Assembly: GCA_022264855.1 (NCBI GenBank)
Contig: JABYQU010000077.1
Location: 1 to 64,000, forward strand
DNA from: Lenzites betulinus
Taxonomy: Eukaryota > Basidiomycota > Agaricomycetes > Polyporales > Polyporaceae
Direction of reading: 5' to 3'
DNA: 64,000 nucleotides
Numbering within the stretch: the stretch's first letter is position 1; the number at the start of each line of letters is the position of its first letter. This document shows positions 1,130 through 50,100 of this stretch, piece after piece. Below the pieces are notes generated by a model. It had not been told where the DNA came from, did not search any database, and saw nothing but the letters and a program-made list of their open reading frames with translations. Made by a program: the position numbers and the translations under genes.

Positions 1130-2205
1130 GATCCCCATCCCTCCCCATCTCTCCACAGATCCCCAGCTCCGCTAGACTCCAGTCGCCTCAACGATGCCCG
1201 TCGACGCGGCTGTCCTCCGATATCCGTCGGAATCGTCACTCTCCTCCGAGAAGCATCACAAAGGTCCCGACGCCGTCAGCGACCCCTTCGACTCTTACAC
1301 CACGACTGTGTCGCCTACGCTAGTGGATCCCTGGCAGACTCTCGCTCAACTGCCTTTCTTCCCGTACGACTGCCGCCTCGCTGGGTACACCCTCCCGCCC
1401 AAACCCGATACTCTCTGCGCGTCGTGCTGGGAGGGTCCGTTCGGGGCGCACGCGGCGTGGCTGTGTGACGTCGCAGACGAGATCCAGGATGCCTCGTCCC
1501 CATCTGCGCTAAAGTCATATTCGTATCGAACATCCAAAGGAGACCTCGAGTCCCGCGCGCGTATGGGTTGCGCTTGGTGCAGTGCGGTGAAATTACAGGT
1601 TCTGGCAATATGGCAGGAATCAGTGAATATCGTCATCGAACTGGGACTTGCCTTCGACAACGGTGTTCCGCCCACTGGCATGCACATGATGGATCTGTCT
1701 TCAGATGGCAATCGACGAGGCTACCGTTATGCCTATAAATTGGATGATGGTGAGACGGAGCGGCCGGGATATGTGCCAATTGATGTGAGCTTTGAAAGAG
1801 CTAATCAGTCGTGATCAACTTCCAGATCATCCCGCGGCGGCGCAAACCAGATTGCACGCGCCCATCCTCGATGTAGGATCTGCGAGAGCGTTCCAGTCAG
1901 CTCGCGAGCTCATGCAGAATTGCGAAAAGAATCACGCACGCTGCAGAGCAATCTCGATCCCCGCCGAGCAAACAACGCTACCGAAGCGTCTCATAGACTG
2001 CACGGACCCCGAGCGCCCGCGTCTGGTGGAGTCCTCCAAGGGCGAATGCGGCCAATACGTTGCGCTCAGCTACGTGTGGGGCGGCGAACAGCCACACAAG
2101 ACCACACAGACCAACCTTTCGACGTACGAGTGCAGGATCAAGCTCGCCCTTCTCCCACAGACAATCCGGGATGCGATTCGCGTGACACGCGAGCTTGGCT
2201 TCAAG
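1130..2205 (+). repeat. left arm of near-identical inverted duplication
   Basis: This 1,076-bp tract matches the reverse complement of 8881-9956 without gaps and with only a few substitutions. It covers 64 bp upstream of the HET start, exon 1, the intron and the first part of exon 2. Identity stops abruptly after 2205, inside the HET domain, although the genes stay homologous beyond it. On the outer side, small indels begin just before 1130. Confidence 0.85.
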
Positions 2206-3528
2206 CTGCTCTGGGTCGACAGCCTCTGTATTGTCCAAGACTCGGGGGAGAAGCAGCACGAAATCGGACACATGCACCACATTTTCCGGTACGCCGTGCT
2301 CACCATCGTCGCCGCAAGCGCCCACGACGCAACGGACGGCTTCCTCCATGATCGTCAGCCGTGGATGCCTGATACCGGTTTTATATTTGATCCCTTCTCT
2401 CTTCCTATTCTTTACCCACAGGCCCACGCTACAGCAGCACCCCAAATGGGTACCCTCACTCTTTGTCCCGATTTTGCATTGCCCTCTTACAGGGATAGGG
2501 AAATGGAGCCCATCAACCAGCGGGCGTGGTGCCTCCAAGAGGAGATTATGTCACCCCGCTCACTCATCTTCTCCTCCCACACCCTGCGGTTCAGATGCCA
2601 GACGGCTACACACAGCATCGGCAACTCCTTCTACCAGTGGGAAGATGAAGTCAGGCTCCCCGACGCACTCCTTCTCCACACACCCTCCCCTCTAGAGCAT
2701 GGCACCCCCGACTGGCACGACGTAAAACACAGATGGATTGACGTTGTGGAGGAGTACACTGGCCGCTCCATGACCGAATCGTCGGACAAGCTAGTCCCAT
2801 GTCCCGCCATCGCCCAGGCCTTCTACCGTGTCCTCACCTCAGACTATCTGGCTGGCCTCTGGCGTTACTCGCTTTTCACTGATCTCCTCTGGCGCGTTAG
2901 CGCAGCACGAAGCCGTCCTGCAGCATTCCGCGCACCGTCATGGTCTTGGGCGGCGGTGGACGGCAAGGTCTCAAGGTTTCTCTTCATCCCAGGCTTCCAT
3001 AAACTTGCAGAGGTCATCCGCTGCGACGTGTTGCTCAAAGAAGACTCACTTCCTTTTGGCGAGGTCTCCGGCGGATCTCTCGTACTGCGCGGCCAGATGC
3101 TGCAACTCCAACTCATGAACAGAGATGCGAGGCAAGTGCAGTTCAACCCGACGGAGCACCTGTTGCGAGATCGTCGGCTGGATCTTAAAGAAGACGCGGC
3201 GGCGGATTCGGTCCTGTGGTACAACATGAAATGGGACGTAGCATACGACTTTGACAGCGCCGACGATTACGACGATCCATCCTGGGCTATCCCGTTTGTC
3301 TGTCCAAACCATCTGAATCACTGGATAGACATGCACTGCCACGGGCTCATCGTCGCTCAAGCTAACCCAGCTACCAGTGACCCCATTTTGGCAGGCGGCA
3401 GGACACTCTATCGCAGGATCGGGTGGTTCGGAGACCTGAGGCGCGAAAACGTGAATGAGTTCGAGCGGCTATTGTTTCAGCCTCTGAAGAACAAAGAGGT
3501 GCCTTTGCAGGAGATTGAGATCATATGA
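1194..3528 (+). CDS. HET-domain (heterokaryon incompatibility) protein, copy 1
   Basis: I reconstruct two exons, 1194-1749 and 1826-3528, separated by a 76-nt GTGAGA..CAG intron; the joined frame gives 752 residues. The HET domain shows its usual blocks: [10 protein letters not shown], then [11 protein letters not shown] about 60 residues later, then RAWCLQEEIMSPRSLIF. HET domains take part in fungal non-self recognition and programmed cell death; the role of this copy is not known. Unlike small HET proteins it has a long N-terminal part with several CxxC-type cysteines (LCASC, GCAWC) and a long C-terminal extension. No membrane segment is seen. It is convergent with the inverted paralog at 7528-9892 and appears to be the functional member. 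The start at 1194 follows a TATA-like element and is conserved in the paralog. Confidence 0.85.
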
Positions 3529-7527: not shown

Positions 7528-9892
7528 TCAAATGATCTCAATCTCCTGCAAAGGCAGCTCCTTGCGCTTGAAAGACTGAAAAGCTAGGGCATGTGTGTCA
7601 ATTACGCTTTGGTTTTGGTGCAGAGGAGGAGGAGTACCGGCTCGGCGGCCCGGAGATCGAGGCATGCCTGAAAACAATCCAATCCTGCGATAGAGTGCCT
7701 TGCCCCCCTCCGCGGAGGGGCCAGCGGGTTGAGCTTGGGTGACGATGAGGCCGCGCAGCCTACAAAACACGCCATAAATGGTATAAACCAACGGGATAAT
7801 CCAACATGGATCGTCGAAGTCGTCGGCAGCGTCGAAGCTGTACGATAAGTGCAATGTCATTTCGTTGCACAGGACCCAGTCTACCGCGGCGTCCTCTTCA
7901 CGACGGGCCAGCCGGTGATCTCGCAACGCCCGCTCTGTCAGACTGAACAGCAGTCGATCCGCATGTCTATCCGCTAATTGGAGTCGCAACAAATGGGCGG
8001 ACAGTACGAGAGATCCGCCGGAAACTTCGCCAAAAGGAAGTGAATCTTCTTTGAGTGATACAACGCACCGAACGACCTCTGCAACTTGAACTTGGATGGG
8101 TTCGAAGTCGAACGTTTTATACCCAACCTGGTTGTCCACCGCCGCCCATGACCACGACGGCGCGCGGAATGTCGCAGGACGCCCTTGTGGTGTGACAGCA
8201 CACCAGAGGAGATCAGTCAGGAGCGAGTGACTCCAGAGGCCGGCCAGATAGTCCGAGCCAAGGACACGGTGAAATGTCTCTGCGATGGCGGCACATGCAA
8301 CCAACTTGTCCGATGGTTCTGTCATGGAGCGGCACGAGTACTCATGCACTACTTCCATCCATATGGCTCGTATGTCGTGCCAGTCGGGGGTGCCATGCTT
8401 GGGAGGGGAAGGCGTTGGGAGAAGGAGTGCGTCGGGGGGCCTGACCTCTCCGTTCCAATCATAGAAAGAGGTTCCGATGCTGTGTGTGGCCGTCTGGCAT
8501 CTGAACAGAGCGGTGTGGGAGAAGAGGAGTGAACGGGGGGACATAAGCTCCTCTTGCAGACACCATGCCCGCTGATTGATCGGTTGCTTGTACGTCTTCA
8601 TGTGTGAGGGCAATGCACGTAGGGGACAAAGAGTGAGAGTGCCAAGTCGCGGTAGTGCTGTAGCGTGGGCCTGTAAGTAAAGAATTGGGACAGAGAAGGC
8701 ATAATTCTCGGAGAGCTGCCACGGCTGATGATCATGGAGTAAGCCTTGTCTAGCGTCGTGAGCGCTTGCGGCGACGATGGTGAGCGCGGCGTAACGGAAG
8801 ATGTGGTGCATGTGTCCTATTTCGTGTCACTTCTCCTCGTCCGAATCCTGGACGATGCATAGGCTGTCGACCCAGAGCAACTTGAAGCCAAGCTCGCGTG
8901 TCACGCGAATCGCATCCCGGATTGTCTGTGGGAGAAGGGCGAGCTTGATCCTGCACTCGTACGTCGAAAGGTTGGTCTGTGTGGTCTTGTGTGGCTGTTC
9001 GCCGCCCCACACGTAGCTGAGCGCAACGTATTGGCCGCATTCGCCCTTGGAGGACTCCACCAGACGCGGGCGCTCGGGGTCCGTGCAGTCTATGAGACGC
9101 TTCGGTAGCGTTGTTTGCTCGGCGGGGATCGAGATTGCTCTGCAGCGTGCGTGATTCTTTTCGCAATTCTGCATGAGCTCGCGAGCTGACTGGAACGCTC
9201 TCGCAGATCCTACATCGAGGATGGGCGCGTGCAATCTGGTTTGCGCCGCCGCGGGATGATCTGGAAGTTGATCACGACTGATTAGCTCTTTCAAAGCTCA
9301 CATCAATTGGCACATATCCCGGCCGCTCCGTCTCACCATCATCCAATTTATAGGCATAACGGTAGCCTCGTCGATTGCCATCTGAAGACAGATCCATCAT
9401 GTGCATGCCAGTGGGCGGAACACCGTTGTCGAAGGCAAGTCCCAGTTCGATGACGATATTCACTGATTCCTGCCATATTGCCAGAACCTGTAATTTCACC
9501 GCACTGCACCAAGCGCAACCCATACGCGCGCGGGACTCGAGGTCTCCTTTGGATGTTCGATACGAATACGACTTTAGCGCAGATGGGGACGAGGCATCCT
9601 GGATCTCGTCTGCGACGTCAAACAGCCACGCCGCGTGCGCCCCGAACGGACCCTCCCAGCACGACGCGCAGAGAGTATCGGGTTTGGACGGGAGGGTGTA
9701 CCCAGCGAGGCGGCAGTCGTACGGGAAGAAAGGCAGTTGAGCGAGAGTCTGCCAGGGATCCACTAGCGTAGGCGACACAGTCGTGGTGTAAGAGTCGAAG
9801 GGGTCGCTGACGGCGTCGGGACCTTTGTGATGCTTCTCGGAGGAGAGTGACGATTCCGACGGATATCGGAGGACAGCCGCGTCGACGGGCAT
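7528..9892 (-). pseudogene. HET-domain gene copy 2, broken by an in-frame stop
   Basis: This is the inverted paralog of the gene at 1194-3528 with the same two-exon plan (9892-9337, intron 9336-9261, 9260-7528) and the same C-terminal ending LPLQEIEII. An in-frame TGA at 8829-8827 lies just after CIVQDS, inside the HET domain, where copy 1 has CAG (Q). The frame stays open on both sides, so a single nonsense codon separates an N-terminal fragment from the remaining 427-residue frame. Upstream of 8881 it is almost identical to copy 1; downstream it diverges strongly at protein level. A CGA to TGA change in this copy would explain the stop. A truncated or re-initiated product cannot be excluded. 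Confidence 0.8.
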
Positions 9893-37448: not shown

Positions 37449-39534
37449 ATGTACTGGGGCTATTCACACATATTTTCTTGGGCCTTCCTGGCAACATTCT
37501 CGCTCTTAGCTGGGGACGTCTATGCGGGAAACACGACATGCGCTAGTGGTCAACTCGACTGGTACACGAGTGTTGTTGGAGAGTCTCCATGTACGTATCT
37601 CAGTCATATCATGACTATTCTTCGCTGCTCACCGTGCTCGCTGTTCAGGTGTAACGTACCAACGACTGCGTCAGATCTGCAATAGTGACTGTGAGTATCG
37701 TCGATGCTGCTGACTCGGCTGTGCTGGACAGCCGCTGATTTTGCTCTCAAGACCAAGTACCTAGCTTTCGACCGAACACCCCCGGAGATAACTGCGATGA
37801 TCAAGTTTGTGAGTGTTGTATCTCACAGGATAGCTTCATTTGCTGATTCCCCTCAGCTGCATGCTGCTGCAATACTGTCGCTTTCCAGTTGAGCATGCTT
37901 TGCATGAAGTACACCTTGCTCTTCCAGAGTCGTCGTATAGTATGTTAATCGATTCTCGTAGCTGTCAACAGGACCATCTCGCCGGTGATCAGATCGGTAT
38001 CGATGCTGGTAAGGCGATCCCGGAACTGTTGCAGCCAGACTATCTTTCTTACTGTTCCCTCGGCAGGGGTTGGGGCATACACGCTGTATCGTGGCGGATG
38101 TGGTGCTGGGACGAACAACGCGTAAGTCACGTCACCTCATTACTAACCTTGCGAGAAATATTGATACTAACCGATGCAACTAGATTACCTTCGGATATAC
38201 AAAAGGCAGTGTGTAACCAGAATATTAGGCTCGACAACTTCGTTTATGGTGGCTGGTCTGATGGCTCGTGGTACGCTGGCTTGAACTGTCGTGTATTCTT
38301 GTTACTCATCCATGCCACGACATAGGTTTTAGTAAGTTTGAACTGTACTACAGTGATCGCCAAACCTAACAGATCTACCAAGTGTTTGGACCCGGGAGAA
38401 TGCCGAACGGGAGCATGCCGCGAACAACGATAACACCTTCACGCATTGCCCGAACCAAATATCCCCGTCCATAACACCCACACCTGCCACTACCAACGCC
38501 AACACCCCAGCTCAGCCAACCAGTGCGACTCCGACAAGTACGCCGAGCACCTCAACTACCAGTACGCCAGATGCGTCCCCAAACACAAGCCCCACAAGCC
38601 CCACAGCCTCAGGCGCGCGCTCGAGCTCTACTGGAACTGGGTCCACCGTGACCACATCAGCAGCCAGTACCTCAAGCACGCTGTCTTCCGGTACGGTATC
38701 GCAGCTTCAGGCTCTCCCCAATGGCCAAACAAACTCTTTGGCTGTCTCGGTAAGCTCTGTGTTCTCCATTTTTATATCTCTATTTAGGCTCAACCCCCCG
38801 GAGGGATCATCCACGCCAACATCCTCTGCCGGTGATGCGCCCTCCTCCCCTGTCCCCGACAATAACAACGACAAGCCCACGAAGTCCTCCTCTGATATGG
38901 GTGCAATCATAGGAGGCGCTGTAGGCGGGGTCTCGCTCGTTGCGGTTGTTGGAATTCTGTTCCTGTTGCTTCGGAGGTGCCGCACTCGGAGAGCCGCCTA
39001 CCAACACCAACCCCACGTGCCTCGCCTCAACGATGTATTCCGTGATGACGAGCACAGTTATGGCACTGCGAACATGAGCGCGGTGCACCCTGGATCCGCA
39101 TCCACCGGCATGGGTGCGTCATATACCCTGCTTCCTTTCACTGCGATCCCAGCTGACAGATTCTCCAACGCTCAGATGTTGGCGGCCAACGAGAGTTCCT
39201 GGTCCCTGCCACAGCCACGGAGACCCCCGGGCGCTCTGCATGGAGCGACTTCTCCAGCGATCTGCCGCAGAGCACGCTCTTCACGAGTCAGGACTTGCGT
39301 CATACGGACGCAGGCGTTTTAGTTCCCCTGCAACGTTCAAGCTCCGGTAGACTCCCTCCGGCGTATCGCTCTTGGGAGGACGGCTCGAGCTCGGGTTCCG
39401 AGGTTTCGACAAATCACCAGCAGAGCGAGGTATCTGGCGAGACTACGAGGTCGGGCGTAGGGTCTGATGCGCATACGCCTCTCGTACCTCTCCGGGGTGA
39501 GAAGGACCCGGACGAATATCATCTTCCTGCATGA
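37449..39534 (+). CDS. Cys-rich single-pass membrane protein, array member A
   Basis: About eleven exons, placed by comparison with members B and C. Signal peptide MYWGYSHIFSWAFLATFSLLAGDVYA. The ectodomain has 12 cysteines in a fixed order, including CASGQLDWYTSVVGESPC, a CCC triplet (SACCCNTVAFQLSMLC) and GVGAYTLYRGGCGAG. A Ser/Thr/Pro-rich stalk follows, then one membrane helix (IIGGAVGGVSLVAVVGILFL) with a basic stop-transfer RRCRTRR. The cytoplasmic tail contains LPPAYRSWED, a PPxY motif. Exon 8 is only 6 nt (38326-38331). The topology suggests a cell-surface sensor or cell-wall-associated protein, but no function is known to me. It is the first of four tandem paralogs. Confidence 0.8.
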
Positions 39535-40319: not shown

Positions 40320-42154
40320 ATGGGTGGGCTTGTGACGCGTTCCTTCCAGCTCTACTTTGCTTCGATCTTCTTGCTAGTCTCAGCGGTCTGGGCTGGTAAC
40401 ACGACTTGTGCGAGCGGGCAGTTGGACTGGTACTCTAGCGTAGTGGGGGAATCACCTTGTACGTCTTCCTTCGAGACTAAGGACGGTGTGCGCGTTCTGA
40501 TCAGCATGCCCGCGGTTAGGCGTGACATACCAGAAATTGCGCCAGATATGCAACAACGACTGTACGCACAACTCAATCATCTGCGGTGGCCTCGCACTGC
40601 GGAGACTGACAGTCGATCTTGTGCCTGCAGATCAAGTCCCAAGCTTCAGACCAAACACCCCCGGGGATAACTGTGATGACCAAGTTTGTGAGTGTTCAAA
40701 TAACATGAACAGTCCTGATATTTGTCTGACATGTCCTCAGCGGAATGCTGCTGCAACACCGTTGCTTTCCAGCTGAGCATGCTGTGTATGAAGTACGGGA
40801 GTTCCGACTACCTAGTGTGGCTCACTTTCTGACCTATGCATGCCGTCGTAGCTGCCAACAGGATCAGCAAGCCGGCGACCAGATTGGTATCGATGCAGGT
40901 CAGTTGTACATCACTAGTGTCGCGAAGAGTCCTGCTCAATAGGTCACCATAGGCGTTGGCGCGTACACGCTGTATCGCGGCACATGCGGCGCCGGAACGA
41001 ATCGCTCGTAAGTCCATGCTGAGTCCCAGTTGTTGGTCTTGTCTAATGTCCGTGATATAGGCTACCTGCAGACATACAGCAAGCTGTCTGTAACGTGAAT
41101 GTCAGACTCGATAACTATTTATATGGGGGATGGGATGATGGATCATGGTGAGTTCTGCGGTCGCCCGATTTATTAGTTCGATGCACTGAACATTTACGAC
41201 AGGTTTTAGTGAGTTACCCTACATCGCTAGCTTCATTCTCGTGCTTACGGAACGTGCTGCAAGTGTGTATACGAAGGAGAACGCCGTCCGCGATCACGCG
41301 GTGAACAACAACAACACATTCACGCACTGTGCGAACCAGATTTCACCCTCTGCGACGCCTACCTCATCGACGTCAGCGACTTCGTCGGGCGCCCAGACTG
41401 CCATTACCGTGAGTACTTGCACGAAAATCCCAACAGCAGCTGACATTCTTCAAGTCAAGCACCCCGACAAGCAGTGCAGCAAATCCGTCCGGCACGAGCG
41501 AGAACGCAAACACTGACTCCGACCACACGACCTCGTCTTCGCATGTAGGGGCTATAGTGGGCGGCGTCGTCGGCGGTGGCTCCGTCATCGTGATCATTGG
41601 GTTTCTCATGTGGCGAACGCGTCGTAATCGACGTTTTGGCGGTATCACCCGCGGCATACAAGAACCGCACCACAATTACGACATCGATTCCGACGCATCT
41701 GGGCCTCAAAACATGATTTCGCCGTTCCCTGGGATGGTTACTCACAGTAAGGACGTTCGTTGCGCATTTCTTTATTTTCTAACGAATATGCTCGTACACA
41801 GGTACGCAGCTGTCGCAATCGACTTCTCCCGGAGCCCCCTCCTCGTGGAGCGACCTTGCCGGCTCAGGACCCCAAGGCTCCTTCCCCACGGACAGTTCCT
41901 TGCGGCACATGGACGCAGGCGTCATCATCCCCGTCCCTCTCGAGCGGTCTTTGTCGGGGAGGCTTCCTCCAGCGTATCGCTCGTGGGAGAACGACTCCAG
42001 CGTTAGGACCGACGTGCCCTCCAGCCACCAAGGAAGCGCGACTTCGCCTCCCAGCAGCCCGCCAGCTTCGGATTCTGCGGCCGACCCGCATATGCCGCTC
42101 GTTCCTCTCAGACTAGAAGAGAAATCGGGTCTTTCGACGCGTTCACAAGCGTAG
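40320..42154 (+). CDS. Cys-rich single-pass membrane protein, array member B
   Basis: The closest paralog of member A. Signal peptide MGGLVTRSFQLYFASIFLLVSAVWA. The same 12-cysteine ectodomain follows with the same introns (CASGQLDWYSSVVGESPC, SECCCNTVAFQLSMLC, GVGAYTLYRGTCGAG, YLYGGWDDGSW). The Ser/Thr stalk is shorter than in A. Membrane helix AIVGGVVGGGSVIVIIGFLMW is followed by RTRRNRR. The tail shares SLRHMDAGV with A and the PPxY motif in LPPAYRSWEN. The micro-exon is at 41203-41208 (GTTTTA), between introns of 55 and 55 nt. All frames join without lesions. Likely a type I plasma-membrane protein; function unknown. Confidence 0.8.
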
Positions 42155-43013: not shown

Positions 43014-44576
43014 ATGCACTTTGGCGGAAGATTGGAATACCTTTCCGGGTGCTGGCGCTACACTCTTTTGCTCCTGACTCTCTGCGTTTTCCCCGTCACC
43101 TGGGCTGCTGTTGCAGCAGCAGCAGACCACACTAAATGCGCCAGTAGTCAGCTAGACTGGTATACCAGCGTAGTCGGCGAGACACCCTGTACTTCGTTGT
43201 CTCCACATGTCTTAGACAATACCTTACCTCGGCGTTTGTACAGGTAAAACATACGAGAGGCTGCGCCAGGTATGCAACGGAGACTGTGAGTATTCTAGAC
43301 ATATTTATATGTATACGACGTGGTCAAATTAACGAGAACACCCTCAGATCAAGTACCAAAGTTCGCGACCACCTTTCCGGGCGATATATGTAGCGACCAA
43401 GTTTGTACGTTGCGAGTTTGATCACCAGAGGCCTCTGTGGCTCATATCGCCTCAGCCGGGTGCTGTTGTAATACAGTTGCCTTCGCGCTCAGCATGCTTT
43501 GCATGAAGTACGTCGTCTGCGAGTGTCTGCGGTCAATGTCGTACGGCCGTGCTCATATCGCTCTCGCAGCTGCCAACAGGATCTCCTAGCGGGGAATCGG
43601 ACTGGGATAGACGCACGTGAGTTTGAACAAATAAGTCTACACATCGGGCTGGTGATTGAAGCTATGTCGAATGTTTTAAAGCCCCTGGGACTTATACCAG
43701 CTATCGGGGAGCGTGCGGCGCTGGAAACAGTCATTCGTAATGTCATATTCCTCTACAGTATATCGCATTACTGATCGCACACCAGGTTGGCATCCGATAT
43801 TCAACAAGCTGTGTGCAACGAGAATATCAGACTTGATGATTTTCTATACGGTGGTTGGGATGATGGGGCATGGTGCGCTCTACGATACGCCTCCACCGAA
43901 TCAAATCGGGCTGACCTTTTCTGACAGGTTCTAGTCAGTTCCTAATTCAACTTTGCGTCCGCTGCGTGCTCACAAAAGCCGTTCTATAGTGTTTGGACGA
44001 AAGAAAACGCCGAGCTCGAGCACGCGGCGCATAACAACAACACGTTCACCCGTTGCTCTGCACAAGCATCGCCCTCCGCGTCAACGTCTCAGGTCAGCTC
44101 TTATCTACTTTTCGCAAGCTCAGTATCCTTACACATCCACGGATGATACCCACAGTCGGGCGCGCTGGTGTCTTCTGCATCTAGTCTCTCGGTCGCCAGC
44201 CAAACCTCATCAAGCGTTCCGACAGGCCAAGCCGCCAGTGCACAGGGAGGATCGAAATTATCAACAGGGGCAAGTGCAGCCATCGGCGGGGTCATCGGCG
44301 CCAGCATTGTTATCCTGTCAGCCGGTATCGGTTTTTTCTTCTGGAGAAGGCGAAAGGCTCGGAATGCCCTAAAGTGTCCGAGCAATGTAGCCCGCCGGAG
44401 CTCAAACCCGTTTCAATACAGACCAGCCGGTCCGGAGTTCGTTACAACGCCGTATTTCGTCGATACAGATGCTCATGGTAAGGTAGGTGGTATACTCGAA
44501 TAAGCTCCGTATCTGATATGTCACTTCGTATCTAGGAGAGTTGGGTGGCGACATCAAACCTCGTCGCTTCGGGTGA
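43014..44576 (+). CDS. Cys-rich single-pass membrane protein, array member C
   Basis: Signal peptide region MHFGGRLEYLSGCWRYTLLL with a hydrophobic core, then the array ectodomain (CASSQLDWYTSVVGETPC, SGCCCNTVAFALSMLC, TYTSYRGACGAG, FLYGGWDDGAW). The micro-exon at 43928-43933 is GTTCTA. The Ser-rich stalk is short. Membrane helix AAIGGVIGASIVILSAGIGFFFW is followed by RRRKARN. The tail is short; I place its last intron so that the protein ends IKPRRFG at 44576, whereas reading through the intron would end at 44503. It lacks the PPxY segment of A and B, so its cytoplasmic partners probably differ. Confidence 0.75.
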
Positions 44577-45343
44577 CGATGCGCCTCATCTGAATTGACG
44601 ATGAATTTAAGGATATGTTCGGTCAAAATCCGTCCGCTCTTTTCATGTGCTTGTTCTTCCGGGGAATTGACTCTCCTGAAGATTTTCTTCGGAAAACAAT
44701 ACACTTGCCACCAGACTTTGCTGGCAGTTAAGGTTCACATATCTGACCACAGCTGTCAGCGCTCAAGAACCGGAGGGCTGACCTCCAGCGGTGATTGCAT
44801 CTATCCATTTAGCTTCTTGGAAGACGCCAACTGGGTTTATCGCCGGGGATGGTTGCTCGAGTTCTAATGCAGGAATCCGATGGTTGCGTTGAGTCACGCT
44901 GGCCGTACAGCAGCCAATGGTGTGGGCAAGAGTAAGCACGGTAAGCTCGCACTCTCTGATAAATAAGCCTGTGAATTGTTCGCTCATGTTCGCATTGTGC
45001 CACTTCGGAATTCTCAGGACCCGAAGCCCCAAGCAACGTACATGCTGGAGGTAGACGTTTGCAGTTCATCACAAGACGGCGCGACTGGTGCAACCAGGAA
45101 TAGTCGTCCATTGCGTGTTGTCCTCCGCGTCTATCCTTGGAGGGCTACCCACTGTGCGACAGTGCATGCCGCAGGCGCAGTTACGCTGTCAGACTGGCGC
45201 GCCTGTGCACGCAAGCGGTGCCCTTGCAACCCGAGTACGGCTTGTCAAGGGCATAGCCGGCATAAACCATCTTCCTCCCACCACGCTCGTCCTCGTCGTA
45301 TTCCTTCGTAACTTCATACCTCACAAGCTGAACGAAAGGGACC
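44577..45343. other. spacer between array members C and D
   Basis: No recognised gene; presumed 3' flank of C and promoter of D. Confidence 0.45.
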
Positions 45344-47138
45344 ATGAGTAAACTAGCACAGTGTGTCTGGCGCTGTGCATCCATATCATTCTTCATCTTC
45401 TTCGAGTTCGGCGGTGCGAAGGGTGAAGGTAATAGCTCGGAATCCGAGTGTCCGAGTGGCCATCTACTATGGTACATACAGTGCTTCAATGAAACCCCTT
45501 GTAAGCGTTTTATCGGATGTCGATGTCATAATAACGCAATGCATGCTTACGCGGGCGAACTTTCGCAGGTGACACTTACAAGAATCTTCGACAGACATGT
45601 GATCCAAATTGTGAGTCTATGGATCGACAAATGACCGCAAGCCGTCCGCGCATTAAGTATCGCAACACGTGGTAGATACACTTCCACCGGATAATTTTGT
45701 CGACCATTAAAGCGAGGATCTGTGTACTGATGCAGGTGTCTCAGGTATGACCGAGGTACCTGAAGCCCACCCCTGCTGACGGTTAGATTACCTGCGTTCG
45801 TAGAACAGTGCTGCTGTAACTCGGCTGCTTTCCAGCTGCATATGCTGTGTCTCAAGTAAGTTTGACATACAGCTTCATGCTCGTGTACTCTCTGACTGGC
45901 TGGCTTACGCAGCTGCCAAATTCCCCGCGAGAAACGGTCGGACCAGCCTGAAGAACCTCAGAACGCTAGTACGTTGTGGAGGCTGCCACATATACTCATC
46001 AGATGTGTGCTCATTGTCTGTCATTGCAGCGTGGACGGAATATACAGCTTACTTCAAACAGTGCCCTAATGGCTCCACCGAGGGAACGCCCCCGTGAGCA
46101 GTGGTACTCTGTGCCAATCCGAAGTAAGCTCATGAATAGATCAGTACATCACCGGCAGGAAATGCCAAACAGGTCATCGCGAGCATGCCGTTCCTCATGG
46201 ACCATCTCCCTTTCGAAAGTGGATGGTACGTGTTCCACATATTTCGGGATAATATGATTGTTTGAATACTCGCCATGGATACTAGGAGTTAGTAAGTCAT
46301 GCCTACGCTGAGGTCCTACGGGGACACCCAAGTATTGATACGACTGTAGTTTTGCGACCAAGGAGGCCGCTGGTGATTGTTCTGCCGATGCGAATAACAT
46401 TTCCTCGCCAACACCCTCGTCGACTCTTACCAATCCTGTGTCACTCCCTACTCATGCAACGTCTATTGTCACTGTGGTAAGCAATGTTCGCAGGTGTCGG
46501 AACGTGAATGTTTATGTTATTTCCTCAATCAGGAATCATTAACATCTACAGCTACATCTACGGGCTCGATTCTCGGCGATGATGCTCATCGAGCAGACGT
46601 CCAGTCTGTACCCCCCGGCGCAATCGCCGGGATAGTGGTTGCAGTAGTGGTGGTAATAGGCCTCCTGTCCGTCGGACTGTGGTACATGCGGAGACAGAGA
46701 CGCAAAGCGCAGGATGTGGTCGTTGGCCGTGAAATTGCTCAGATGACGGGCAACAGTGCGACTGTCCCAACGAGGAAAAGAGGTGAGGCTTGATCACCTT
46801 TTCACGTGGAGTGTAGACTCAGAGTCTTCGAATTTCATCGCTTAGGAGCGTACCTCTCGATGTCCTTTACTCCGCTGCTGATGCGCCGCCGTGCGAGCTC
46901 CTCTTCTGGAAGTGACACGCCGCCCCCGATTACCTTTCATCCCGACGCCATGGTACGACGGGTGTCCCCAATGCCATTCTCCGAGGTGGCGCATTCAGAG
47001 TCACTCCCAGGCTACGCTGCATGGGATGCGAAGCGGATCGATGAGAAGTTGATAGCGAGCAACCGCACGGATTTGCGTGTTCGTGAATCCATGGACGAGT
47101 CACCGAACCCGTTTCTGCCCATCCACCTTTGCGCTTAG
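45344..47138 (+). pseudogene. Cys-rich membrane protein, divergent and probably decaying member D
   Basis: The exon plan follows A-C: signal peptide region MSKLAQCVWRCASISFFIFFEF, then CPSGHLLWYIQCFNETPC, EQCCCNSAAFQLHMLC, TEYTAYFKQC, a 6-nt micro-exon (46286-46291), a Ser/Thr stalk, membrane helix AIAGIVVAVVVVIGLLSVGLW and basic RRQRRK. The long tail has LPGYAAWD where A and B have LPPAYRSW. Two problems stand out. An in-frame TAA lies in the third exon, after LPPDNFVDH near 45710, and the exon starting near 46162 joins its predecessor one base out of phase. One ectodomain cysteine (in A's KAVC) is missing. The downstream membrane and tail exons remain open. Unusual splicing could rescue it; otherwise it is a recent pseudogene. 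Confidence 0.5.
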
Positions 47139-50100
47139 GCTCGGAGACGTAGTGAGCATTGCTGCTGGTGGCCTCGTATTCAATGACTTTTTTCTTGGAA
47201 AATCTTGTGTATCATATTCGTACTATTTACGATCTGAGAACTCTCGTTGTGGCTTACGAACTACTATAATATTTCGACGAGGCCAGAGCCTGTCGCGCGC
47301 AAGACTCGTCGCAGCGCACGGTACGGTCACGGGACACAAGCAGACGCGTGTCGCGTTTGTTGACGCGTTGTTTGTTGCGCGTCTAACCACGCCTGGCCTC
47401 GCGGCGTCGGGCTCGTCTGCTCCTTGCTCTCGACGACGACACTCGCACTGGCCGACGCATGCTTCGCCCCGATACCGTGCAGACGGATACTCTCCTCCTT
47501 CGCTCTTTCGACGACCCTCATCGCTCCGGGTCCTTGTTCATGTGGCTACTGCTGTTCTGCCGCTTACCGACGCATCGCCTCCAGCCAATAATTTCCACTC
47601 TCTAACCCAGAGTGAGATCTAACCCTAAGTGCATATAGGATGTCCTCGTGTTCCTTCTATGCTCTGGGACGTCAACGCTATGGGAGTATATCGTGGTCGG
47701 GCAATGCCACATCTTTGTGCGGGGAGCGTGCGGTGGTCAGGTACGCACCTTTGCATCATGTGAATCTTGTGAGTCTGTGTCTCCTCTCTTGGCGTCCAAC
47801 TCTGGATTTTCTCTTGCTATGACCCTCTCGGACCTCTTCAACTGCTTCCCCGGCACGTGTCGCGCGTCTGGGTCAGTCGACTTGTGCTGAGCGCTACAAA
47901 CAGATCTCCGTTAGCGTCGCTTCGGGGCCCCGCCTTTCTCCAGTATGTCCGAGATGTGCTACGTACAGAGCACCGCTCTGCGTGTGCTTCGCACTACGGC
48001 TTGCAGCGAGCAAGAGGGAAAGTGACGTCAGCACGCGTGAGATCCGTCCTCAGTGGAAGTAGATCCCAGACAAACGCACTAGGGAAGCGTCGCGGTTCAT
48101 TTGAGCTTTTCTGAGGGGCGAGCTGGACACGCACACCAGGTTGGTCAACCGCTGGGAGAGCTGCGACAGGTTGGCTACGAACAGGCCTTCCCAGGTCCCC
48201 TTGCCTTCCATTGCTCCCCTCCATGATTCTATGATCGTTGCCTCCGACCCGCCGTCACAACTCTCGTCCCTCTCACGGCGTGCGTCACCACTCTCCGGAG
48301 TAGCCGAGTATACGTACAGAGCACAGGGCATCTTGAGTTCTTGACTCATTCGCGAGGGGTGTCCTCGGGACTGCAAGGTCCAGCGGGGCCACCTCTCAAC
48401 CCCGGTGATGTTTGCGCCGATTTTGGCTCGCCGCAGGGGGCTCTGCGCGTCGCGCTGTCTATTCTCAAGACGGCCGTCGCGCAGCGCAGGACCCTGGAAG
48501 CGCTGGTATGCGCAGCTAAATAGGCATGGCTTCGCGATGCTGAGGTGGCGAATAATGGAACGGGCTGTGGCCACATGAACATCAAGAGAACACACAGTTA
48601 GACGAATGGGGATGTTTAGATCCAACGGTTATGCAAGGGCAGGGTGCTCATGCGTGCGGGCTGCAACGTCCGTCGAGACTTGGTCTAGTCTGGGAGATAC
48701 GCACAGGGAGGAGCAGGTGCGGCGGTGGGCTCTGTGCCTTCTGTTCGTATAGTTCCTTCAAGTCTACTCGGCTGCCCCCAACTCCTGCCCTTCCAATACA
48801 GGAAGGCGGGCGCCGGCACCCGCTACGCCACCAACTCAGCTCTCACTACAATCTGCCCGCAGCTCGGAATTTGTGATGCGACCGCGCGCACTGCGTTGAC
48901 TCGTACCAGCACCCACTTGGATGCTATTGGGCCGCCCTAGGGACCTGCGAGCGTTCTCGTTATTCAGGCAAGCCGGCTACGACCCGTGTGGCGTGCACTC
49001 TCTATGGTCTCGTTTCTGTCCTTCCTATGCTCATCCTGGCACGAGAAAACCGATGCGCACAGGCATGGCAACATCCCACCCCTATTGACCCAGCGGCCTG
49101 ATACCGCCTCACTGTACTCTCCCCTCTCGTGGCGCATTGTTGCTCGGTGGCTTGCACCTCGACGTTAGACTCGGTCCTCCCTGCAGTAAAATTGCAGCTC
49201 CTTCGGGATGTTTCAATAGAGACTTGTTCTCGATGTTACTTGGGGAAAACGTGTCTTGCCTTTTGGGTGGGACGCGTGGGACAATGCAGTCAGTCGATGC
49301 GTGTAAGGCCCCCGGCGACGTTTGTCTGCGGGGGGCGTGAGGGGGCAGATGCAGGTGATGCGTAGGGCTGTTGGCGAGGGGGCGCGGTGAGCCTTGCGTC
49401 TCGTATGTAGCGGTGCCAGGTAAGCGTCACGTACATGAAGGCTGAACAGACTTGCGAGTGTGTTACGTGCATGGCGAGCAGGGCTCTGAGCGCGACCCTC
49501 TGGGTACGCGAGAGGATGTGAACGGGAGACCCTCAGGGTGAGTGTCCATGTCCAGGTGGTACGTTTCTCCAGGGCAATACGCGTAGTCTTTAGCCCCTTC
49601 GCGGGTGCACGCAAAGGAGGAGCTGTGCTTTGTGGTGGCGGAAACCTCTGCCTCGTGTGGAGGGAGTACGGGGAGCAGGAGTTGAGCGAATGGCGTGGTC
49701 GAATAGCCCCCGCGTATTGCGCGGGGCGGTGGCGGATGCGGGGGAATACGGTTAGACCAGCCGTGTTCGAGAGTATGCTGAGCAGGACAACGTGCGCCGA
49801 GCTTCCGCTCGGAGGATCTCTCCCGTTATCTTCATAATTTTTCACATCGTGTCGCCTTCGAGGTGACGTTGGGGAATTTTCGAGCAGCAGCGGTTCTTCA
49901 GTGCGGTGAGTGGAGTTGTATCATCTCAAAAACGTACTAAATCATGTATAGGGTGGCGAACGATGGTCTTAGTATGGAGGTAGATTGTTGTACATCTGCC
50001 CCTGCGAATACACCTGGATTATTGTTGACTTCATGATCACTGGGTACGGCGCCACAGCTGCCCGCATGTTGAGAAGCGCCCATGCAGCGCACAAACAGTG

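What the first reader, a model, noticed from the sequence alone, without database searches (positions are those of the whole stretch)
38326..38331. A 6-nt micro-exon conserved at the same place in all four array genes
Exons of exactly six bases are predicted at 38326-38331 (GTTTTA), 41203-41208 (GTTTTA), 43928-43933 (GTTCTA) and 46286-46291 (GAGTTA). Each lies between two GT..AG introns (55/51, 55/55, 55/56 and 60/58 nt). Each splits the same codons, completing W, coding F (S in D) and starting Y before VWT or its equivalent. Skipping would join the outer exons in frame but give a 112-nt intron, about double the local norm. Conservation of both tiny introns and the phase argues that the micro-exon is real. 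Gene finders will usually miss it.
Basis: partly seen in the sequence, partly recalled or inferred. Interest (0 to 1): 0.8.

Follow-up and report, generated by a model that had tools for sequence, protein, structure and literature searches.

The report
Six-base micro-exon in mushroom surface genes
A bracket-fungus gene family of unknown, probably cell-surface, proteins carries a coding exon only six bases long that supplies most of a conserved three-amino-acid motif; it appears to be shared by several orders of mushroom-forming fungi, and about a quarter of the public gene models examined lack the residues it encodes.

Summary
Confirmed. In Lenzites betulinus (100% protein match) genes A-D each have a 6-nt exon between two short GT..AG introns, as stated. 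A fifth paralog, E, lies just outside the window (contig 69245-69250, minus strand). The exon completes a conserved Trp, encodes Phe (Ser in D) and starts Tyr: the W-[F/Y]-Y motif of a 12-cysteine ectodomain. Neighbouring exons have identical lengths in A-C, while the flanking introns have mostly diverged. Shuffled intervals yield a W-x-Y 6-nt exon in 0.03-0.2% of trials.

Of 212 listed homologs, 156 keep W-x-Y/F and 47, in six orders, show the exact skip product (one Cys). At E, the only skip model whose DNA I could read, the exon is present and the model omits it. All 13 transcript-like ORFs include the motif; one is 91% identical to a Suillus luteus model that skips it. So skip models are probably mainly annotation errors, and inclusion looks constitutive, by intron definition.

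Corrections: public models of A and B already include the exon, so gene finders do not 'usually' miss it; D has an in-frame stop; no sign of regulation was found. Tiny fungal exons (6 nt, even 1 nt) are known; I found no report of this one.

The parts
37449..39534 (+). Gene A (public model C2E23DRAFT_579536, P0007, Lenzites betulinus)
38184..38270 (+). Gene A exon 7 (87 nt, ends ...TCG TG)
38271..38325 (+). Gene A intron 7, 55 nt, GTACGC..TAG
38326..38331 (+). Gene A 6-nt micro-exon GTTTTA (W-F-Y)
38332..38382 (+). Gene A intron 8, 51 nt, GTAAGT..AAG
38383..38749 (+). Gene A exon 9 (starts T GTT TGG); right border from my draft, the public model reads on
40320..42154 (+). Gene B (public model C2E23DRAFT_578839, P0001)
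   Evidence: 100% identity over 303 aa, micro-exon residues included; end read from the sequence
41061..41147 (+). Gene B exon 7 (87 nt)
41148..41202 (+). Gene B intron 7, 55 nt, GTGAGT..CAG
41203..41208 (+). Gene B 6-nt micro-exon GTTTTA (W-F-Y)
41209..41263 (+). Gene B intron 8, 55 nt, GTGAGT..AAG
41264..41408 (+). Gene B exon 9
43014..44477 (+). Gene C, from the start codon to the end of the last exon modelled here
43786..43872 (+). Gene C exon 7 (87 nt)
43873..43927 (+). Gene C intron 7, 55 nt, GTGCGC..CAG
43928..43933 (+). Gene C 6-nt micro-exon GTTCTA (W-F-Y)
43934..43989 (+). Gene C intron 8, 56 nt, GTCAGT..TAG
43990..44092 (+). Gene C exon 9
45344..46477 (+). Gene D (divergent), from the start codon to the end of exon 9 as modelled here; one in-frame TAA in exon 3
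45708..45710 (+). In-frame TAA in gene D exon 3 (45676-45744) under family-like borders
46145..46225 (+). Gene D exon 7 (81 nt)
46226..46285 (+). Gene D intron 7, 60 nt, GTACGT..TAG
46286..46291 (+). Gene D 6-nt micro-exon GAGTTA (W-S-Y)
46292..46349 (+). Gene D intron 8, 58 nt, GTAAGT..TAG

Best explanation
It is a genuine, ancient and mainly constitutive 6-nt coding micro-exon in a family of Agaricomycete proteins that look like single-pass membrane proteins (signal-like N-terminus, 12-Cys ectodomain, Ser/Thr-rich stalk, one membrane helix, cytosolic tail often with LPPAY). It supplies the last base of a conserved Trp codon, the central F/Y codon and the first two bases of the following Tyr codon. 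How it is spliced (inferred): each of the two 51-60-nt introns is recognised as a unit by intron definition. The hexamer is too short for both neighbouring splice sites to be occupied together, so the introns are probably removed one after the other; whichever goes first fuses the hexamer to a normal-sized exon. The donor after the hexamer is strong on its intronic side, which may compensate for a non-consensus exon side (TTA/CTA) and compete against single-step skipping. Selection on the protein keeps it: skipping turns W-x-Y into one Cys and gives the ectodomain an odd number of Cys. Shown: the sequence, its conservation among five paralogs, inclusion in the public models of A and B, and the motif in transcript-like ORFs of homologs. 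Inferred: presence of the exon in other species' DNA, splicing order, intron definition and the protein cost of skipping.
For: Exon borders and frame in A, B, C and D; fifth copy E. Intron cores show little residual similarity (18 of 20 paralog comparisons with z below 2; B-C z = 3.0 and 2.1), while the hexamer and its splice sites persist. Shuffled intervals give a W-x-Y 6-nt exon in 0.0003-0.002 of trials. Homologs: 156 of 212 W-x-Y/F, 47 exact skip product, 9 other. 13 of 13 lgn/jgi-only ORFs (333-489 aa, longest contigs 1.2-3.5 kb) have the motif. P0023 (lgn) is 91% identical to the skipping S. luteus model P0039. The 47 skip models: Polyporales 24, Boletales 17, Agaricales 3, Atheliales, Jaapiales and Sistotremastrales 1 each (names; count; orders of four species checked, the rest recalled). 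E is skipped in the public model P0085 though the exon and its sites are present. Ectodomain Cys: 12 in 133 of 149 included proteins, 13 in 37 of 42 skip models (9 of 158 and 3 of 45 rows without the first Cys column were left out). Micro-exon donors have AGT at +4..+6 in 5 of 5 against 14 of 39 other donors of the five genes. Intron definition as the route for micro-exons with short introns: passages of PMC8378409.
Against: No RNA reads from L. betulinus could be examined. Whether those homologs carry the micro-exon in their DNA is not known; some may have lost one or both introns. That a Cys signature means a missed micro-exon was checked on DNA at one locus only (E). 13/0 against 145/45 gives Fisher p = 0.077, not significant. 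The donor-strength test is post hoc. In A the acceptor after the hexamer is AAG with a CAG only 10 nt upstream, which might compete. Homolog lists were cut at the best 120 of 188, 206 and 207 hits and the queries contained the motif.
Confidence: 0.92

Rival explanations
1. The micro-exon is a cassette: inclusion and skipping are both real and regulated, switching the ectodomain between W-x-Y and an extra Cys.
For: Skip is in frame in all five genes; 47 of 212 listed proteins, in six orders, show exactly this product; the AG|GT at the start of the hexamer in A, B, C and E would also allow a zero-length recursive step with the same outcome; a switch-like 20-nt micro-exon is described in Trichoderma Xlr2 (PMC11121469, passages).
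Against: 0 of 13 transcript-like ORFs show skipping; close relatives disagree (P0042 against P0046 and P0050, 91%; P0121 against P0159, 88%), as expected of gene-caller differences; the skip form usually has an odd Cys count.
Confidence: 0.06
2. There is one 110-124-nt intron (or a stwintron removed in two steps) and the hexamer is never in mRNA; W-F-Y in models is gene-caller noise.
For: 47 of 212 listed proteins have the product of this splicing; fungal stwintrons exist (PMC6616335, abstract and outline only).
Against: W-x-Y is present in 13 of 13 transcript-like ORFs and W-x-Y/F in 156 of 212 proteins; it would not recur at the identical place by noise; the other introns modelled in A-C are 46-69 nt, leaving out a doubtful 38-nt one.
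Confidence: 0.02
3. Another small exon or a shifted splice site is used, for example the 3-nt options (TTTTAG|TAA|GT, or GAG|TTA in D) or a later donor within intron 7.
For: Enumeration finds such in-frame paths; 9 of 212 listed proteins are mis-spliced, read through or end at this place.
Against: No alternative found in A, B, C or E keeps the conserved W-x-Y; they give Cys, deletions or insertions.
Confidence: 0.02

Closest known systems
Micro-exons of Phanerochaete chrysosporium P450 genes (PMC1184071)
   Same: White-rot basidiomycete; exons down to 6 bp (2 aa) in genes with frequent 45-55-bp introns (passages)
   Different: Different gene family; no cross-order conservation test in the three passages read
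One-nucleotide exon of Fusarium CYP621A (PMC12940212)
   Same: Very small exon inside a conserved protein motif, hinted at by a combined intron more than twice the median length; omission corrupts a conserved residue (passages)
   Different: Ascomycete P450; 1 nt, so skipping shifts the frame; inclusion shown there with SRA reads
Conserved small plant micro-exons that are pervasively misannotated (PMC8831610)
   Same: Deeply conserved exons of 15 nt or less, often missing from reference gene models; strong signals in flanking introns (passages)
   Different: Plants; shown there with RNA-seq and genome-wide
Trichoderma Xlr2 20-nt micro-exon switch (PMC11121469)
   Same: Functional fungal micro-exon (passages)
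   Different: 20 nt, glucose-dependent alternative splicing; no sign of regulation found here
Fungal stwintrons (PMC6616335)
   Same: Two nested or adjacent splicing reactions within one interval
   Different: A stwintron leaves no exon; here a conserved hexamer remains (only abstract and outline read)

Membership tests
Constitutive coding micro-exon (30 nt or less) | Very short exon with canonical splice sites on both sides | tested here: met
   6 nt, GT..AG introns on both sides in A-E
Constitutive coding micro-exon (30 nt or less) | Present in mature mRNA | tested here: inconclusive
   13 of 13 transcript-like ORFs of homologs include the motif; no L. betulinus reads available
Constitutive coding micro-exon (30 nt or less) | Conserved residues encoded, position kept in paralogs or orthologs | tested here: met
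   Five paralogs by DNA; in other species only by the skip signature, six orders
Regulated (cassette or switch-like) micro-exon | Inclusion level varies with tissue or condition | not testable with these tools
   No RNA-seq; no skipped transcript-like ORF seen, 0 of 13
Spliceosomal twin intron (stwintron) | A consensus element of an outer intron is interrupted by an inner intron and nothing between them stays in the mRNA | tested here: not met
   Public models of A and B keep the hexamer; W-x-Y/F kept in 156 of 212 proteins; no direct mRNA test
Recursive (zero-length) splice site AG|GT | AG|GT juxtaposition usable as acceptor then donor | tested here: inconclusive
   Present as AG|GTTYTA in A, B, C and E, absent in D (AG|GAGTTA); a poor donor match; the product would equal skipping
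Mid2-like cell-wall sensor (a label on some public homologs) | Match to a curated domain model | tested here: not met
   No Pfam family above its cut-off for B or C; 'Mid2 domain-containing' appears only as a source name

The most novel reading that the evidence does not exclude
The hexamer is an ancient switch in a surface receptor of mushroom-forming fungi: inclusion gives the folded 12-Cys ectodomain; regulated skipping (directly or through the AG|GT recursive step) puts a thirteenth, unpaired Cys at the base of a helix, allowing disulfide-linked dimers or a non-functional form, conserved across six orders.
Probability: 0.06. Interest if true: 0.8.

Novelty: new member of a known kind. Interest (0 to 1): 0.42.

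Why it matters
It is a clean case of a tiny exon kept at one codon position, apparently across several orders of Agaricomycetes, so it is a natural test bed for how intron-defining spliceosomes handle exons too small for both splice sites at once. It also points to a systematic error: 47 of the 199 non-transcript public models examined carry a probably false Cys in place of three residues of a Cys-rich ectodomain, which would mislead structure prediction, cysteine pairing and expression constructs. The Cys-for-W-x-Y signature suggests a simple way to look for missed micro-exons in protein databases.

Tried and rejected
DNA of homologs from other species: one scan each of viral contigs and genome contigs found no relative; metagenome contigs had a cap of zero and was not scanned. 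So the exon's presence in the DNA of other species is inferred from protein models only.

Fold comparison: in the AlphaFold2 model of P0001 the ten-residue blocks from 31 to 190 have mean pLDDT 83-96, but Foldseek against the PDB gave one match, at E 3.8, and a profile search of PDB sequences matched mainly transmembrane segments, best E 0.0018. No known fold assigned. Coordinates are not returned, so burial of the W-F-Y residues was not measured.

Pfam scan of B and C: nothing above cut-off.

A strict DNA pattern for the whole site found A, B and C only in the own genome; it was too narrow for D and E. A protein search of the own genome found pieces of A-C and E; D was not found by it, so the paralog count is a lower bound.

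Stwintron, pure skipping and shifted sites were considered and rejected for the reasons given. Counts vary with the method: 76 included/39 skipped/5 other of 120, 138/47/6 of 191, 158/45/9 of 212, 156/47/9 of 212; the report uses unless it says otherwise. Among the nine 'other' are P0026 and P0114, which seem to read intron 7 through and then give R-F-Y, and P0096, whose Q-V-L-V-S reads like CAG GTT TTA GTA AGT; these were judged by eye.

The first donor table had two wrong D borders, corrected; the exon 6 start of D was corrected. Literature on the family: a term search inside PMC8893723 for micro-exons or exon skipping found nothing.

Full report
What is there. The window is contig 84, bases 1-64000, of a 37.4-Mb genome. 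The spliced product of gene B (first 303 aa) is 100% identical to C2E23DRAFT_578839 of Lenzites betulinus (P0001), and exons 1-9 of gene A give the first 285 residues of C2E23DRAFT_579536 (P0007). L. betulinus belongs to the Polyporales. Four tandem genes on the plus strand, A (37449-39534), B (40320-42154), C (from 43014) and D (from 45344), share one exon plan. In A, B and C the exons from the second to the eighth have exactly the same lengths: 42, 57, 52, 47, 55, 87 and 6 nt, with the same phases. The eighth is the six-base exon of the finding.

A fifth copy. Searching the genome with the ectodomain of B found pieces of A, B and C and one more gene on the opposite strand of the same contig, at about 69.1-70.1 kb. 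Its DNA (L028) has GTTTTA at contig position 69245-69250 between introns of 52 and 52 nt. D was not returned by that search, so the number of paralogs is a lower bound.

Is it more than chance? When each interval between exon 7 and exon 9 is shuffled with its ends kept, a 6-nt exon with introns of at least 45 nt appears in 3-13% of trials, and one that restores W-x-Y in 0.03-0.2% (20,000 trials per gene). It is found in five of five genes. These are paralogs and not independent, but the cores of the flanking introns have little detectable similarity left: 18 of 20 pairwise comparisons have z below 2 against shuffled partners, the exceptions being B-C (3.0 and 2.1). So the hexamer and its splice sites have outlasted most of the sequence around them.

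What other gene models show. Three protein searches found 188, 206 and 207 proteins and listed the best 120 of each; together 212 distinct homologs. The named ones are Agaricomycetes as far as I can tell from the listings. Placing each on included and skipped templates gives 156 with W-x-Y or W-x-F, 47 in which these residues are replaced by one Cys, and 9 other (slightly different counts by multiple alignment). The Cys form is what results if TG is joined directly to the T of exon 9. Among the 9 others are models that seem to read intron 7 through and then give R-F-Y (P0026, P0114).

Are the Cys forms real? Four points say they are mostly annotation errors. First, gene E: its public model P0085 reads GDCVYT while its DNA has the hexamer with good splice sites, GTTTTA|GTGAGT. 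This is the only skip model whose DNA I could read. Second, 13 proteins come only from the sources lgn and jgi, with longest contigs of 1.2-3.5 kb and unbroken reading frames of 333-489 aa; in intron-dense genes these are best read as transcripts, though no call labels them so. All 13 include the motif. Against the remaining models (145 included, 45 skipped by that count) this is p = 0.077, suggestive only. Third, near-identical relatives disagree: P0023 (lgn) is 91% identical to the skipping Suillus luteus model P0039; Suillus variegatus P0042 includes while S. discolor P0046 and S. fuscotomentosus P0050, both 91% identical to it, skip; Sistotremastrum suecicum P0121 includes while S. niveocremeum P0159, 88% identical, skips. 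Fourth, included proteins have 12 ectodomain Cys in 133 of 149 cases, skip models 13 in 37 of 42 (rows without the first Cys column, 9 of 158 and 3 of 45, left out).

How old is it? If a Cys signature marks a missed micro-exon, then the exon is present in Polyporales (24 models), Boletales (17), Agaricales (3: Collybiopsis, Marasmius, Mycena), Atheliales (Piloderma), Jaapiales (Jaapia) and Sistotremastrales (species names; count; orders of Lenzites, Jaapia, Piloderma and Sistotremastrum checked, the others recalled). Listed Rhizoctonia and Ceratobasidium proteins have the motif, but that does not tell whether they have the exon. No DNA of other species could be obtained.

How it probably works. 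The two introns are short, and the combined interval (110-124 nt) is about twice the 46-69 nt of the other introns modelled in A-C, leaving out a doubtful 38-nt one. Steric interference between splice sites across micro-exons is discussed in passages of PMC8378409. That work in C. elegans proposes that micro-exons are handled by intron definition and reports that replacing a long upstream intron by a short one relieves a need for PRP-40. Here both introns are of a size where intron definition should be the default, so sequential removal is the likely route; this is inference. The donor after the hexamer has AGT at +4..+6 in five of five genes against 14 of 39 other donors of the five genes (p = 0.011, post hoc), while its exon side matches CAG poorly (mean 0.2 of 3 against 1.0). 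This fits compensation by the intron side. In A, B, C and E the acceptor is followed by GT (AG|GTTYTA), which could act as a zero-length recursive site, but D lacks it and the product would equal skipping. In A the acceptor after the hexamer is AAG with a CAG 10 nt upstream; the public model uses the AAG.

The protein. The family has a helical N-terminus that looks like a signal sequence, a confidently modelled helical ectodomain (ten-residue blocks from 31 to 190 with mean pLDDT 83-96), a Ser/Thr-rich stretch, one likely membrane helix and a tail with LPPAY, invariant in the 12 sequences of A2; PPAY occurs in 128 of the 212 homologs. W160 is invariant and Y162 at least 90% conserved in the 93 sequences of A1, but these were chosen as included forms, so that is circular; the 13 transcript-like ORFs, not chosen for it, all have W and Y. 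No Pfam family and no PDB fold match was found. Its function is unknown; a surface sensor or adhesion role is a guess.

Gene D. Under family-like borders D has one in-frame TAA at 45708-45710. The paths found that avoid it change the conserved borders. D may be a pseudogene, or spliced differently, so it is weaker evidence than A, B, C and E.

What is known. Six-base exons are reported in P450 genes of Phanerochaete chrysosporium (passages of PMC1184071), a one-base exon in Fusarium CYP621A (passages of PMC12940212), a 20-base switch in Trichoderma Xlr2 (passages of PMC11121469), and pervasive misannotation of conserved micro-exons in plants (passages of PMC8831610). Seven searches on micro-exons showed, in their listed rows, no paper that I recognised as describing this family or this exon; only openly licensed papers are held and only the top rows are listed. 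So this is a new member of a known kind, notable for its apparent depth of conservation and for the error it seems to cause in databases.

Noticed in passing
45708-45710: In-frame TAA in exon 3 of gene D under family-like exon borders; D is also shorter in exon 7 (81 against 87 nt) and has diverged strongly, so it may be a pseudogene.
   Followed up: partly
39355 and 41966: The tails of A and B carry GRLPPAYRSWE, with a PPxY motif; LPPAY is invariant in the 12 sequences of alignment A2. No PPxY was found in the forward frames of 43990-44700 (C) and 46350-47200 (D). PPxY as a WW-domain ligand is recalled.
   Followed up: partly
L028 4300-6400 (contig about 69.1-70.1 kb, minus strand): Fifth paralog outside the window whose public model P0085 omits the 6-nt exon although it is present in the DNA.
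   Followed up: yes
38750-38787: My draft of gene A removed a 38-nt GT..AG stretch in the stalk and ran into stops; the public model P0007 reads through it, so it is probably not an intron.
   Followed up: partly
1194-3528 and 7528-9892: Very similar ORFs in opposite orientation about 4 kb apart (translations), suggesting an inverted duplication.
   Followed up: no
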